The position numbers were made by a program, and so were the translations under genes. DNA of 64,000 nt from Saprospiraceae bacterium (lineage in GTDB: Bacteria; Bacteroidota; Bacteroidia; Chitinophagales; Saprospiraceae): contig JAIPBE010000001.1 in the NCBI GenBank assembly GCA_021738725.1, positions 1-64,000 on the forward strand. The letters are read 5' to 3'. Positions 47,278-51,561 of this stretch are shown piece by piece; position 1 is the stretch's first letter; every line of letters begins with the position of its first letter. The notes under the pieces are model-generated. The model did no database searches. It worked only from the letters and a program-made list of their open reading frames with translations, and was not told where the DNA came from.

Positions 47278-47285
47278 TAAATGTA
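47278..47285 (-). promoter_or_regulatory. Near-consensus -7 box TACATTTA for pyrE
   Basis: One mismatch from TAnnTTTG, 18 bases before the pyrE ATG on the minus strand. It overlaps the first codons of the divergent Nudix gene. Confidence 0.35.
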
Positions 47286-47892
47286 TAAAATATACTGCAA
47301 CGATCACCAATTGGTGCTGGCATCACACCCTCCTGAATCTGCGGATGATTGGACTCTAGTGACCCGCTATCACGGCAAGCCCAAGTCCATGTTCCCGATT
47401 TTAGATGCTATGGAGAAGCGGTCGGGGCAAGAACAGGTGTGGCTGTACCATGAAGATATGTCTGTGTTGTGGCATGATTTCAAACACCTGTTCACATTGG
47501 TAGAAGCTGCAGGAGGGATAGTGTTGAATCCACTCGGTGAAATTTTAGTGATCTACAGGAGAGGTTATCTGGATTTACCTAAAGGGAAGTTGGAAACTGG
47601 GGAGTCTTTTCCGGAGGCGGCCGAACGTGAAGTGAAAGAAGAGACGGGGTTGAGAGATCTCAAATGCGGTGGTCCGGCAGGGGAGACCTGGCATTTATTC
47701 AAGGAAAAGAAGAGGAGGTTTTTAAAGTATACAGCCTGGTTTTGGATGGAAGCAGACCAGGCAGAACTTATACCCCAGGCGGAGGAAGGCATTGAGGATG
47801 TCCGTTGGATTCGGCCGGAAACCTATGCAAACAGCGGGAATTCTACTTTTCGCAATATCCGTGACATGATGAACGTAGCATTCGAGCTATGA
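47281..47892 (+). CDS. Nudix hydrolase
   Basis: The 203-residue protein has a complete Nudix box at 102-124 (GKLETGESFPEAA, then REVKEETGL), with the catalytic REVKEE glutamates. An N-terminal extension of about 75 residues precedes the Nudix fold. Nudix enzymes hydrolyse nucleoside diphosphates linked to other groups, and the substrate cannot be predicted. Placement back to back with pyrE suggests, weakly, a link to nucleotide metabolism. Confidence 0.9.
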   Translation: MYKIYCNDHQLVLASHPPESADDWTLVTRYHGKPKSMFPILDAMEKRSGQEQVWLYHEDMSVLWHDFKHLFTLVEAAGGIVLNPLGEILVIYRRGYLDLPKGKLETGESFPEAAEREVKEETGLRDLKCGGPAGETWHLFKEKKRRFLKYTAWFWMEADQAELIPQAEEGIEDVRWIRPETYANSGNSTFRNIRDMMNVAFEL

Positions 47893-48199: not shown

Positions 48200-48592
48200 A
48201 TGAAAAAGAATCTCAAGTTTTTAATACTTATCGGGGGGCTGATTGTAGGTGGATCTCTTAGCGCACAATCCCTCTCGAATGTTCACACCATCCCATCAAT
48301 GGACAACCTCGTTTCTGCCGATGCAGAAGATGCAGGTTTCCTGGATCCTCAGGATGCGTTTTTCCTTGATCTCTCCGGTAAAGTTTGCTTTATTGACTTT
48401 GAATCACTCAAACTCAATGTAAAGTCTATTCAGTTGGTTTCGGCAAAAGGCCAGACCCTCATGAACGATCGCGTTGACCATTTGCCCGTCAACAGCATCT
48501 ATGAATTGGATCTTCGATCCTTCCCATCAGGCCGTTATCAGATCGTTCTGGAAGGCTACGTTGGTGAGATCATCAAGAGCTTTTCTTTATAG
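48200..48592 (+). CDS. Small exported protein resembling a lone sorting-type beta domain
   Basis: The 130-residue protein has a signal peptide ending near GGSLSAQ. The mature part, about 105 residues, is one beta-rich unit with SIQLVSAKGQTLMND, LDLRSFPSGRYQIVLEG and a final strand IIKSFSL, a layout much like the type A C-terminal domain of type IX secretion cargo, but without any cargo domain in front. It may be a secreted beta-sandwich in its own right. It stands alone, with its own promoter and no close gene downstream. Confidence 0.7.
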   Translation: MKKNLKFLILIGGLIVGGSLSAQSLSNVHTIPSMDNLVSADAEDAGFLDPQDAFFLDLSGKVCFIDFESLKLNVKSIQLVSAKGQTLMNDRVDHLPVNSIYELDLRSFPSGRYQIVLEGYVGEIIKSFSL

Positions 48593-48837
48593 GCATTTTC
48601 CATTCTTTCCTCCTTTTCTTGTGACCCACCACATCCCTGGTGATGGGAGTTCTTTCTTCTCCGCAGACGTTATTCGGATCTAACTGCTCGTCTGCCTCCC
48701 AAGGTTAATTCCCCGCCATACTTTCTGAGGATGTGATCAATCAGGCTCGGGCATCTGATGTTTCTTCACGCATATTGCTGTATGTCCGGATGTACGCTGT
48801 TATTCATTTGAATAATTGGCTGTTTTCAGGATGAACG
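48593..48837. other. Intergenic gap with no recognised element
   Basis: About 245 bases with no supported reading frame. Nothing beyond the weak -7 box at its right end was recognised. Confidence 0.5.
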
Positions 48838-48845
48838 TACCTTTA
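48838..48845 (+). promoter_or_regulatory. Near-consensus -7 box TACCTTTA
   Basis: One mismatch from TAnnTTTG, only 4 bases before the ATG of the McrB-like gene. If real, the transcript would be leaderless or nearly so. Confidence 0.35.
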
Positions 48846-48849
48846 GGGA

Positions 48850-50199
48850 ATGCAGGAATCCACTGACTATACCAGCCCTCCGCTGAACTACCTGATTCAC
48901 GGACATCCCGGCACAGGGAAGCGGACATATGCCTCTCAACTGGCAGTGGCATTAGCCGACCAGCTGCCCTTAGACGAAGTGCTGAACTGGCCAGCCCCGG
49001 AGCTGTACAATCGATATCAGGCGCTGGTAAATGAGGGGCAACTCTTCTTCTTGACCATGCATCCCGGCTGGACCTATGCCGACATGATCGAACGCTGTCT
49101 GTTTCAAGAAAACAATGTAATCGTACACGATGGTATTCTCAAGCAGATCGCCACAGAGGCCAGAGGAAATCTGATCGAGCATCTACTTCAGGCGGAACCG
49201 GGCATTATGCCCAGCGTCGATTTCAAGGAATTATATACTCGTTTTGTTGAGCATCTTCAGGAGAATGGGGAAATCAGCTCTGTCAAGGGCGTTCCAAACC
49301 CGTTTTTACTACACTCCATTATGAAGAATGGAGATATTCTGCTCCGTAAACCAAAGACATTTCAAGTCATCCGGATCAAGCGAAGCAAGCTCCGGCAATT
49401 ATATGTGGTGCAACAAGAGGAATCAGATCCTCAGGTTGTGTCAACCAAATGGCAGAATATACTGGAAGGAGAGAATCTACCTGCATTCGAAGCGATCTGG
49501 TCCCAGTTCAACAGTTATCAAATGGCCTATTCAGAGGCCACCCAACCGGTAGAGATACCCGGCCCTGATCCCTATCTCGATATCCAGATGGATATATTGC
49601 CCTCCGGAGTCCTCCAATCCAGTAAGAAGTATGTATTGATCCTGGAACATATTCAGATGATCGAACCGCAGGCCTTGTTCGGTGATGCCCTGCCCATCCT
49701 GGACAGCCGTCGACGGGAAGGTTGTCGATGTGCTCAGTCCGTCATCCTGCCTGGTTCAAAGACCTCATTTACCCTGCCACCCAACCTGTTCATGATCGGG
49801 ATATCACAGCAGATACCCTCATGGTCAGACGAAGTGGCTTTCTTGATGAGTAAGGTGTTCCAGTTTGTCCATCTGGATGCCAATCAGCGGCATCAGGACT
49901 GGCCAGTCATCCGCTCTGTCTCCACCTTGGATCTCTGGAATGCGATCAATGCTGTCATCACGACCCATAGGTCCCCATCCTTACAATTTCCAGGCGGGGC
50001 ATTTCAGGATTGCAGTACAGTCAAAGACCTTCAGGCACTCTTCGCCAAAAGGGTCCTGCCTTATCTCGAGTGGTTGTCCGGAAATGATGCGCAATTACAT
50101 CAGAATATCCTGCAAGACCTTCTGGGCCCGCTGGCCGTTCATCCCGAAAATATTCACCAGTGGAAACTGGCAGATTTCAAGCGAATATCCAGGCGCTGA
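48850..50199 (+). CDS. McrB-like AAA+ protein with eroded catalytic motifs
   Basis: The 449-residue protein follows the layout of McrB-type AAA+ proteins. A good Walker A is at 18-26 (GHPGTGKRT), then FFLTMHPGWTYADMIE (67-81), which parallels the McrB stretch after motor strand 2. At the Walker B position (261-270) it reads YVLILEHIQM, lacking the acidic pair, and the sensor 1 region FTLPPNLFMIGISQQ (307-321) lacks the asparagine and the McrB MNTxDxS signature. The arginine-finger segment LMSKVFQFVHL (332-342) lacks its arginines. Nucleotide binding may remain but hydrolysis is doubtful. No McrC or restriction partner is adjacent. Confidence 0.7.
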   Translation: MQESTDYTSPPLNYLIHGHPGTGKRTYASQLAVALADQLPLDEVLNWPAPELYNRYQALVNEGQLFFLTMHPGWTYADMIERCLFQENNVIVHDGILKQIATEARGNLIEHLLQAEPGIMPSVDFKELYTRFVEHLQENGEISSVKGVPNPFLLHSIMKNGDILLRKPKTFQVIRIKRSKLRQLYVVQQEESDPQVVSTKWQNILEGENLPAFEAIWSQFNSYQMAYSEATQPVEIPGPDPYLDIQMDILPSGVLQSSKKYVLILEHIQMIEPQALFGDALPILDSRRREGCRCAQSVILPGSKTSFTLPPNLFMIGISQQIPSWSDEVAFLMSKVFQFVHLDANQRHQDWPVIRSVSTLDLWNAINAVITTHRSPSLQFPGGAFQDCSTVKDLQALFAKRVLPYLEWLSGNDAQLHQNILQDLLGPLAVHPENIHQWKLADFKRISRR

Positions 50200-50262: not shown

Positions 50263-51561
50263 ATGGCTAAAATGTTCAAGTTTGGTGGTTCCAGTCTGAA
50301 AGATGCTGCTGCCATTCGAAATGTCGCATCCATCCTTCAACGATACAAGACAGAGAATCTGGTCATTGTGGTGTCTGCTCTGGGCAAGACTACGAATGCG
50401 CTGGAAGAAGTCATCATGGCCCATGCCAAGGGAGATGGCACAGCGCAAGAACGCTTTGCCAGGATACAGGAAGTCCATTTTTCACTGGCAGCAGAATTGC
50501 TGCCGGAGGGGCATCCGGTGTTCTCGCTTTTGAATGACACATTTGTAGAGGCGCAGTGGGTGCTGGAGGAACCGCCACACCCAAACTTCGACTATATGTA
50601 TGATCAGATCATCTGTGTGGGTGAGCTGGCCTCCTCCAGGATCGTGGAAGCGTTTTTGCAGCACGTAGGACTGGAAACCGTATGGTTGGATGCCAGGGAA
50701 GTGATCATCACTGATGATATCCATCGGGAAGGTTGGGTCAATTGGGAGGAGACCGGAAAACGGATGGAAGCGAAGGTGCGGCCACTGATGAACCAACCCG
50801 GGTTTGTTCTTACCCAGGGGTTCATTGCCAGCACGTTGGACAATGCGACCACAACCTTGGGCAGGGAAGGATCGGATTATACCACAGCCATTTTCACGTT
50901 TTGCCTGAATGGCGAAAGCATGACCATCTGGAAGGATGTACCGGGAGTGTTGACCGGTGATCCCCGAATGTTTGCCAATGTGACCAAACTGGATCGATTG
51001 TCCTACCGGGAGGCGATCGAAATGACCTATTACGGCGCCAAAGTGATCCACCCGAAGACCATCAAACCGCTTCAGAACAAGTCCATCCCCCTGTATGTCA
51101 AATCATTTATCGACCCGGATGGGGATGGCACATTGATCTCATCAGATATTGAAGATCTCTATCCGCCGATCGTCACTTTGGAACAACAGCAAACCCTGCT
51201 GAGTATCTCGACCCGCGACTTTTCCTTTGTGGCGGAACATCATTTGAGTCTCTTATTCCAAAAGATCGCCGACCTGCGTCTGCAGGTAAATATCATGCAG
51301 AATTCTGCGATCAGTTTTTCTATTTGTGTCAACCATTCACCGGACAAGGTGGATGAGTTTATCGCAGGTATCGACAAAGAGTTCAAGGTCCAACGAGAGG
51401 ATGATCTTGAATTGATCACCATCCGCCATGCCCAATCTGACCTGCTGGACAATTTGCGCAAAGGCAAGATCATCTTCCTCGAAGAACATATTCGCGACAC
51501 TGTCCAGTTTGTAGTGAAGGAGGTGCCGATGATGAGTCGGAAACCGAATCCAACCAGCTAG
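50263..51561 (+). CDS. lysC: Aspartate kinase
   Basis: Aspartate kinase phosphorylates aspartate, the first step towards lysine, threonine and methionine. The 432-residue protein starts with KFGGSSLKDAAAIRN, has GREGSDYTTAIF (about 200-215), WKDVPGVLTGDPR and YYGAKVIHPKT, and ends with ACT-type regulatory sequence (about 305-430) that usually binds lysine or threonine. No fused homoserine dehydrogenase is present. It is monocistronic and converges with the threonine-catabolic kbl gene, with only 6 bases between the two stops. Confidence 0.95.
   Translation: MAKMFKFGGSSLKDAAAIRNVASILQRYKTENLVIVVSALGKTTNALEEVIMAHAKGDGTAQERFARIQEVHFSLAAELLPEGHPVFSLLNDTFVEAQWVLEEPPHPNFDYMYDQIICVGELASSRIVEAFLQHVGLETVWLDAREVIITDDIHREGWVNWEETGKRMEAKVRPLMNQPGFVLTQGFIASTLDNATTTLGREGSDYTTAIFTFCLNGESMTIWKDVPGVLTGDPRMFANVTKLDRLSYREAIEMTYYGAKVIHPKTIKPLQNKSIPLYVKSFIDPDGDGTLISSDIEDLYPPIVTLEQQQTLLSISTRDFSFVAEHHLSLLFQKIADLRLQVNIMQNSAISFSICVNHSPDKVDEFIAGIDKEFKVQREDDLELITIRHAQSDLLDNLRKGKIIFLEEHIRDTVQFVVKEVPMMSRKPNPTS

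What the first reader, a model, noticed from the sequence alone, without database searches (positions are those of the whole stretch)
48850..50199. Orphan McrB-like AAA+ protein with eroded Walker B, sensor and arginine-finger sites
The P-loop (18-26) and the McrB-like FFLTMHPGWTYADM stretch are clear. Where McrB proteins have the acidic Walker B, this protein reads LILEHIQM; the MNTxDxS signature reads ISQQIPS; and the arginine-finger helix lacks arginines. There is no McrC or nuclease next to it and it has its own weak promoter. A nucleotide-binding but non-hydrolysing AAA protein outside restriction would be unusual.
Basis: partly seen in the sequence, partly recalled or inferred. Interest (0 to 1): 0.6.

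Follow-up and report, generated by a model that had tools for sequence, protein, structure and literature searches.

The report
Disarmed McrB restriction protein, kept
In a Saprospiraceae-type bacterium, the motor subunit of an ancestral anti-phage McrBC restriction system has lost its DNA-reading domain, its nuclease partner and its catalytic residues, but natural selection still preserves it, so it has probably been re-used for another cell function, as was shown once before for the Staphylococcus cell-division protein PcdA.

Summary
The 449-aa protein has the McrB AAA+ fold (model pLDDT 83.5; Z 23 to Thermococcus McrB). Its catalytic sites are gone: Walker B Asp-Glu is Glu266-His267, NxxD is QQIP, and the arginine finger is Val. 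The gene is not decaying. Orthologs (70-80% identity) at the same locus in two other species carry the same changes under purifying selection (pN/pS about 0.23, as in intact relatives). Synteny gives the origin. Several other genera have an intact EVE-McrB at the same pyrE-NUDIX-secreted-protein site, in some with an ankyrin protein and McrC or with McrC alone. In the window's genus the EVE domain, ankyrin gene and McrC are lost. A second genus has an EVE-less, eroded homologue beside lysC, like the window; a motif-masked tree joins the two (96/95). A third genus shows a probably independent erosion. Best reading: a domesticated pseudo-GTPase, probably a scaffold or switch, outside restriction. 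PcdA of S. aureus is a known precedent for McrB co-option, so this is a new, more extreme variant of a known kind. Whether it still binds nucleotide, and what it does, is untested.

The parts
48850..50199 (+). McrB-derived pseudo-GTPase gene (449 aa, AAA+ domain only, no EVE reader domain)
   Evidence: orthologs L002 (70%) and L003+L012 (80/77%)
48901..48927 (+). P-loop, residues 18-26 GHPGTGKRT: Lys24 kept, Mg-coordinating Thr replaced by Arg25
49042..49086 (+). McrB-like LFFLTMHPGWTYADM block, residues 65-79 (canonical FVTFHQSFSYEDF)
49630..49659 (+). Eroded Walker B, residues 261-270 YVLILEHIQM (canonical YVLIIDEINR)
49798..49827 (+). Eroded NxxD / sensor-1 consensus loop, residues 317-326 GISQQIPSWS (canonical GTMNTADRS)
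49828..49860 (+). Former arginine-finger helix, residues 327-337 DEVAFLMSKVF (canonical ..ALRRRF); R425->K335, R426->V336
48816..48845 (+). Possible Bacteroidota-type promoter TTGG-N18-TACCTTTA ending 4 bases before the ATG; the box TACCTTTA/G is conserved upstream of all three orthologs (transcript may be leaderless)
   Evidence: consensus match only
47281..47892 (+). NUDIX hydrolase gene, conserved upstream neighbour (locus marker)
48200..48592 (+). Small secreted DUF3244-like gene, conserved upstream neighbour (locus marker; weak Pfam match)
50263..51561 (+). Aspartate kinase (lysC-type), downstream neighbour in the window's genus and in genus g115

Best explanation
A domesticated pseudo-GTPase. 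Shown by sequence: it descends from the McrB subunit of an EVE-McrB (ankyrin) McrC type IV restriction locus that sits at the same chromosomal site in other genera of the family; the EVE reader, the ankyrin gene and McrC are gone, the catalytic residues are replaced, and the protein is still under purifying selection at the level of active McrBs. Inferred: it no longer translocates DNA or licenses a nuclease. It works as a non-hydrolysing (or extremely slow) AAA+ scaffold or switch that assembles and binds a partner through its intact core and lid, possibly modulated by a nucleotide or other phosphate ligand held by Lys24 and Arg25 without Mg2+, in a housekeeping role outside restriction, in the manner of PcdA.
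For: Synteny: pyrE-NUDIX-secreted-EVE-McrB in G034 (with ankyrin and McrC), G076 (with McrC only), G225, G268 and others. Same three-species erosion and same locus in the genus. Purifying selection: pN/pS 0.235 in frame, 1.16 and 1.81 in the other frames; intact relatives 0.10-0.34. 449 codons align without gaps between window and L002. EVE remnant not found upstream and an in-frame stop precedes the ATG. Intact McrB fold including the C-terminal lid. 74 of 81 McrB-like ORFs from relatives have Asp-Glu at Walker B; the exceptions are the g1, g115 and g82 proteins and one ORF cut by a contig end. g1+g115 form one clade, 96/95, with motif columns removed. Both sit directly upstream of lysC. TgMcrB mutagenesis: T222A, D356A, R425A and R426A impair and E357A abolishes hydrolysis (PMC7680126). 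Precedent of co-option: PcdA (PMC10602043).
Against: No functional, expression or binding data. The gene is missing from two of five species of the genus (G003, G004), so it is not indispensable. PcdA, despite an eroded site, still hydrolyses NTP slowly, so 'non-hydrolysing' may be wrong. The model relies on an alignment made mostly of intact relatives.
Confidence: 0.62

Rival explanations
1. A decaying relic of a McrBC locus: the gene is a pseudogene on its way out, with the motifs lost by drift.
For: EVE domain, ankyrin gene, McrC and catalytic residues are all gone; the gene is absent in G003 and G004; very long branch leading to the clade (2.39 changes per column).
Against: No stops or frameshifts in the three orthologs despite synonymous saturation; pN/pS 0.23 equals that of active relatives; P-loop block 89%, residues 62-82 86% and 276-303 96% invariant among orthologs (the last with only two of three sequences over 19 residues).
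Confidence: 0.05
2. A still defensive protein: a regulatory or decoy McrB paralogue, or an eroded subunit that forms mixed rings with an intact McrB and uses its McrC in trans.
For: Descends from a restriction system; the McrB fold is intact; catalytically dead AAA+ subunits in mixed rings are known in general (own knowledge). G002 has a separate intact McrB with McrC (C177).
Against: Neither the window genome nor G001, G119 or G205 has a detectable McrC; the window genome has no second match to the protein. A stable chromosomal locus without defence neighbours.
Confidence: 0.15
3. A cell-division or cytoskeleton factor, a functional parallel of PcdA (binding FtsZ or a similar polymer).
For: PcdA is McrB-derived, lacks McrC, has eroded sites and binds FtsZ; its authors note a parallel in animal CTTNBP2 (PMC10602043).
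Against: PcdA keeps two EVE domains and lost the C-terminal bundle; this protein shows the reverse. Neighbours are metabolic, none of division. No direct evidence.
Confidence: 0.1
4. An active but unusual NTPase in which substituted residues (Arg25, Glu266, His267, Lys335) form a new catalytic site.
For: Glu266 could still bind Mg; His267 is shared by g1 and g115 (E->H); Lys335 is invariant in g1; PcdA hydrolyses ATP and GTP at about 0.9 per minute despite erosion (PMC10602043).
Against: Arg25 in place of the Mg-coordinating Thr and loss of the arginine finger and the NxxD Asn together; in TgMcrB the single substitutions T222A, D356A and R426A impair and E357A abolishes hydrolysis (PMC7680126).
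Confidence: 0.08

Closest known systems
EVE-McrB of McrBC-type (type IV) restriction loci
   Same: AAA+ domain with McrB-specific blocks; positional ortholog at the pyrE-NUDIX-secreted-protein locus in other genera
   Different: No EVE domain, no McrC, no ankyrin gene; Walker A Thr, Walker B, NxxD and arginine finger all replaced
PcdA of Staphylococcus aureus (McrB-derived cell-division protein; PMC10602043)
   Same: McrB lineage, McrC absent, Walker B Glu lost, arginine finger eroded, conserved and apparently outside restriction
   Different: PcdA keeps tandem EVE domains, the Mg-chelating Asp and a sensor Thr, and lost the C-terminal helical bundle; the window protein lost EVE and the Asp but keeps the lid. 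Different phylum; a direct sequence comparison with PcdA was not made
Thermococcus gammatolerans McrB AAA+ domain (6ut3, 6ut5)
   Same: Closest solved fold, Z 23, 297 residues aligned, 22% identity
   Different: Active GTPase with all catalytic residues and McrC
CTTNBP2/Nav2/Unc-53 (animal McrB-derived AAA+ proteins; cited in PMC10602043)
   Same: Eroded McrB-derived AAA+ re-used outside immunity
   Different: Eukaryotic; not compared here by sequence

Membership tests
McrB family (fold and descent) | AAA+ domain of the McrB type | tested here: met
   PF07728 above cut-off; TgMcrB best solved relative by profile (4e-85) and by fold (Z 23); nested in the McrB tree
McrB family (fold and descent) | MNxxDRS consensus loop conferring GTP specificity | tested here: not met
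   SQQIPSW at the aligned position; PMC7680126 states that all McrB homologs contain the consensus
Functional McrB GTPase | Walker A GxxGxGK[T/S] | tested here: not met
   GHPGTGKR: Lys kept, Thr replaced by Arg25 in all three orthologs
Functional McrB GTPase | Walker B Asp and Glu | tested here: not met
   Glu266-His267 in all three orthologs; Asp-Glu in 40 of 40 other relatives of alignment A2
Functional McrB GTPase | Trans Arg425/Arg426 | tested here: not met
   Lys335/Val336
McrBC restriction system | McrC partner (PF10117) in the operon or genome | tested here: not met
   None in G000; none in G001, G119, G205
EVE-McrB subfamily | N-terminal EVE domain | tested here: not met
   Protein starts at the AAA domain; in-frame stop before the ATG; no EVE similarity upstream
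PcdA | Tandem N-terminal EVE domains | tested here: not met
   No EVE domain
PcdA | Septal localisation and FtsZ binding | not testable with these tools
   needs experiment
PcdA | McrB-derived, McrC absent, Walker B Glu lost | tested here: met
   description from PMC10602043

The most novel reading that the evidence does not exclude
A previously undescribed domesticated pseudo-GTPase family: after loss of its nuclease and reader domain, a McrB lineage in this Bacteroidota family (at least five species in two genera, plus a probably independent erosion in a third) became a conserved, non-catalytic AAA+ protein with a Mg-free P-loop (Arg in place of the Mg-coordinating Thr) that performs a core cellular role.
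Probability: 0.4. Interest if true: 0.7.

Novelty: new variant of a known kind. Interest (0 to 1): 0.52.

Why it matters
Defence genes are usually thought of as mobile and short-lived. Here a restriction locus has a fixed chromosomal address across several genera, and one lineage has been stripped of reader, nuclease and catalysis yet kept under selection. Together with PcdA it suggests that McrB rings are repeatedly re-used for non-immune work, and the series of states in one family (full EVE-McrB-ankyrin-McrC; EVE-McrB without McrC; EVE-less pseudo-McrB) makes the order of loss directly testable.

Tried and rejected
Relic or pseudogene: rejected on pN/pS and intact frames in three species. 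My first impression that genus g10 has lost the NxxD motif was wrong: g10 keeps Asp-Glu and NxxD and has lost only R425, although no McrC was found in three g10 genomes. A first structure model on a four-sequence alignment was poor (pLDDT 52) and is not used. tblastn for an EVE remnant upstream of the gene: nothing beyond chance. Close relatives in the genome-contig collection: only the two orthologs already found. Order and phylum samples (396 and 395 genomes) gave no further close member of the eroded clade among the matches read. NCBIfam gives the window protein only an insignificant McrB match; PADLOC gives only a weak, partial mad8 match. In one search the pyrE and kbl rows compare misplaced frames (amino-acid identity 0.31-0.48 through my choice of coordinates) and must be ignored. 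No paper describing this family was found, within a library of open-licence papers only.

Full report
What is there. The ORF at 48850-50199 (+) encodes 449 residues. Pfam gives AAA_5 above its gathering score (28.8 against 22 bits), and the first solved relatives by sequence are the McrB AAA+ domains of Thermococcus gammatolerans and E. coli. A 47-sequence alignment (A2) gives an AlphaFold2 model with mean pLDDT 83.5 and pTM 0.62. The model matches TgMcrB (6ut5) best, Z 23.0 over 297 residues and spanning residues 9-448, so both the core and the C-terminal lid are present.

Which residues are gone. TgMcrB biochemistry defines K221/T222 (Walker A), D356/E357 (Walker B), N410/D413 (consensus loop) and R425/R426 (sensor II and arginine finger) (PMC7680126). 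Using the HMMER alignment and alignment A2, these correspond in the window protein to K24/R25, E266/H267, Q320/P323 and K335/V336. All 40 relatives outside genera g1, g115 and g82 in A2 keep K221, T222, D356, E357, N410 and R426. Among 81 McrB-like ORFs collected from relatives, 74 have Asp-Glu at Walker B; the others are the g1, g115 and g82 proteins and one ORF cut off by a contig end. Its account of the P-loop is too generous: the residue after Lys24 is Arg, not Thr/Ser. The residues that touch the alpha-phosphate in trans (E375, K378) are conservatively kept as Asp285 and Arg288.

It is conserved. The genus has five species in the collection. Three carry the gene: the window genome, G001 (70% identity, 449 codons aligned without gaps) and G002 (80% and 77% in two pieces split by a contig gap; 19 residues missing). 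All three share GHPGTGKRT, the ILEH Walker B and the MSK(V/A)F finger helix. Synonymous sites are saturated (pS 0.75-0.86 between the window and the others) while pN/pS is 0.13-0.24 for the window against the others and up to 0.35 for G001 against G002. For window against G001 the value is 0.235 in frame and 1.16 and 1.81 in the shifted frames; intact EVE-McrB pairs in six genera give 0.10-0.34. The protein is under ordinary purifying selection.

Where it comes from. In G034 the order is UbiA-, M42 peptidase-, pyrE-, NUDIX+, secreted DUF3244-like+, EVE-McrB (644 aa, EVE and AAA_5 by Pfam, all catalytic residues), an ankyrin protein, McrC (PF10117). G076 has the same order with McrC but no ankyrin gene, and G225, G268 and G302 share NUDIX-secreted-EVE-McrB. 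The window has UbiA-, M42-, pyrE-, NUDIX+, secreted+, the eroded McrB+, lysC+. The window protein is therefore the positional ortholog of the McrB of this restriction locus. It starts directly at the AAA domain after an in-frame stop, and no EVE similarity remains upstream. No McrC is detected anywhere in the window genome.

A second genus and a third. In genus g115 (G119, G205) an EVE-less McrB of 474-479 aa is also eroded (P-loop GS/AVGSGRN, Walker B EH or DH, no arginine finger). In G119 it is immediately followed by the start of an aspartate kinase gene; the contig end overlaps by 127 identical bases the contig that carries the rest of that gene, so the lysC adjacency is shared with the window. 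A maximum-likelihood tree with all three motif stretches removed joins g1 and g115 with support 96/95; both are on long branches, so attraction is not excluded, but the lysC adjacency, EVE loss and Glu-to-His change agree. Genus g82 (G086) has another eroded copy (IIKS, LLDNEP, LLSKF; N-terminus beyond the contig end) that groups weakly (80/36) with g10, whose EVE-McrBs keep Asp-Glu and NxxD but lack R425 and have no McrC in three genomes. So McrC loss appears to precede catalytic erosion, and erosion probably happened more than once; this order is inference.

How it probably works. Shown: descent, losses, constraint, predicted fold. Inferred: without E357, N410 and R426 equivalents it should not hydrolyse GTP at a useful rate (in TgMcrB E357A abolishes and T222A, D356A, R425A and R426A impair activity, PMC7680126); without a reader domain and McrC it cannot do McrBC restriction. 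The most conserved stretches among the three orthologs are the P-loop block, residues 62-82, 160-185 and 276-303, which fits a scaffold or switch that still needs its AAA+ core. Whether a nucleotide is bound is open: Lys24 is invariant in g1, but g115 has Arg there.

Comparison with what is known. PcdA of S. aureus is a McrB-family protein without McrC, with a degraded Walker A, no Walker B Glu and one arginine finger lost; it acts in division-plane selection, binds FtsZ and hydrolyses ATP and GTP slowly (PMC10602043). The window family is the same kind of event in another phylum but goes further in catalysis (the Mg-ligand Asp, the sensor and both arginines are changed) and differs in what was kept (lid kept, EVE lost; in PcdA the reverse). 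The large McrBC census (PMC11090510) treats NxxD and NxD variants; in the passages read I found no mention of this eroded group. I therefore file it as a new variant of a known kind: McrB-derived in fold and descent, not a functional McrB, not PcdA.

Noticed in passing
L073:7047-11370 (G034), also L074, L075, L087, L090: EVE-McrB, an ankyrin-repeat protein with a lipoprotein-like signal sequence (L073:8966-10132...LFMLGCAAS) and McrC in one operon; the ankyrin protein matches the PADLOC candidate defence family PDC-M72A (1.8e-55). A secreted or lipid-anchored partner inside a McrBC operon is odd.
   Followed up: partly
loci L073, L078, L079, L081, L082, L084, L087: A restriction locus with a fixed chromosomal address (pyrE-NUDIX-secreted protein) in several genera, unlike the usual mobility of defence genes.
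   Followed up: partly
L039, L045, L048, L049, L050 (genera g58, g101, g86): Intact EVE-McrB genes whose genomes carry McrC only on other contigs; McrB apparently uncoupled from McrC while still catalytically intact.
   Followed up: no
L144:163-1146 (G086): Third, probably independent eroded McrB (IIKS Walker B, LLDNEP sensor); the contig start carries a short inverted copy of part of the gene, likely an assembly artefact.
   Followed up: partly
window:48200-48592: Small secreted protein with a weak DUF3244 match, kept beside the McrB locus in many genera even where McrC is gone; both it and the McrB-like gene are missing from the NUDIX locus of G003 and G004.
   Followed up: partly
window:48816-48845 and window:50233-50240: TAnnTTTR boxes directly before the McrB-like gene (TACCTTTA, 4 bases from the ATG) and 30 bases before lysC (TACCTTTG), suggesting separate transcription of the two genes and a possibly leaderless McrB-like transcript.
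   Followed up: no
window:54248-55813: 521-aa ORF on the minus strand without any Pfam or NCBIfam match, only 47% identical to its counterpart in G002 although its neighbours are 72-92% identical.
   Followed up: no
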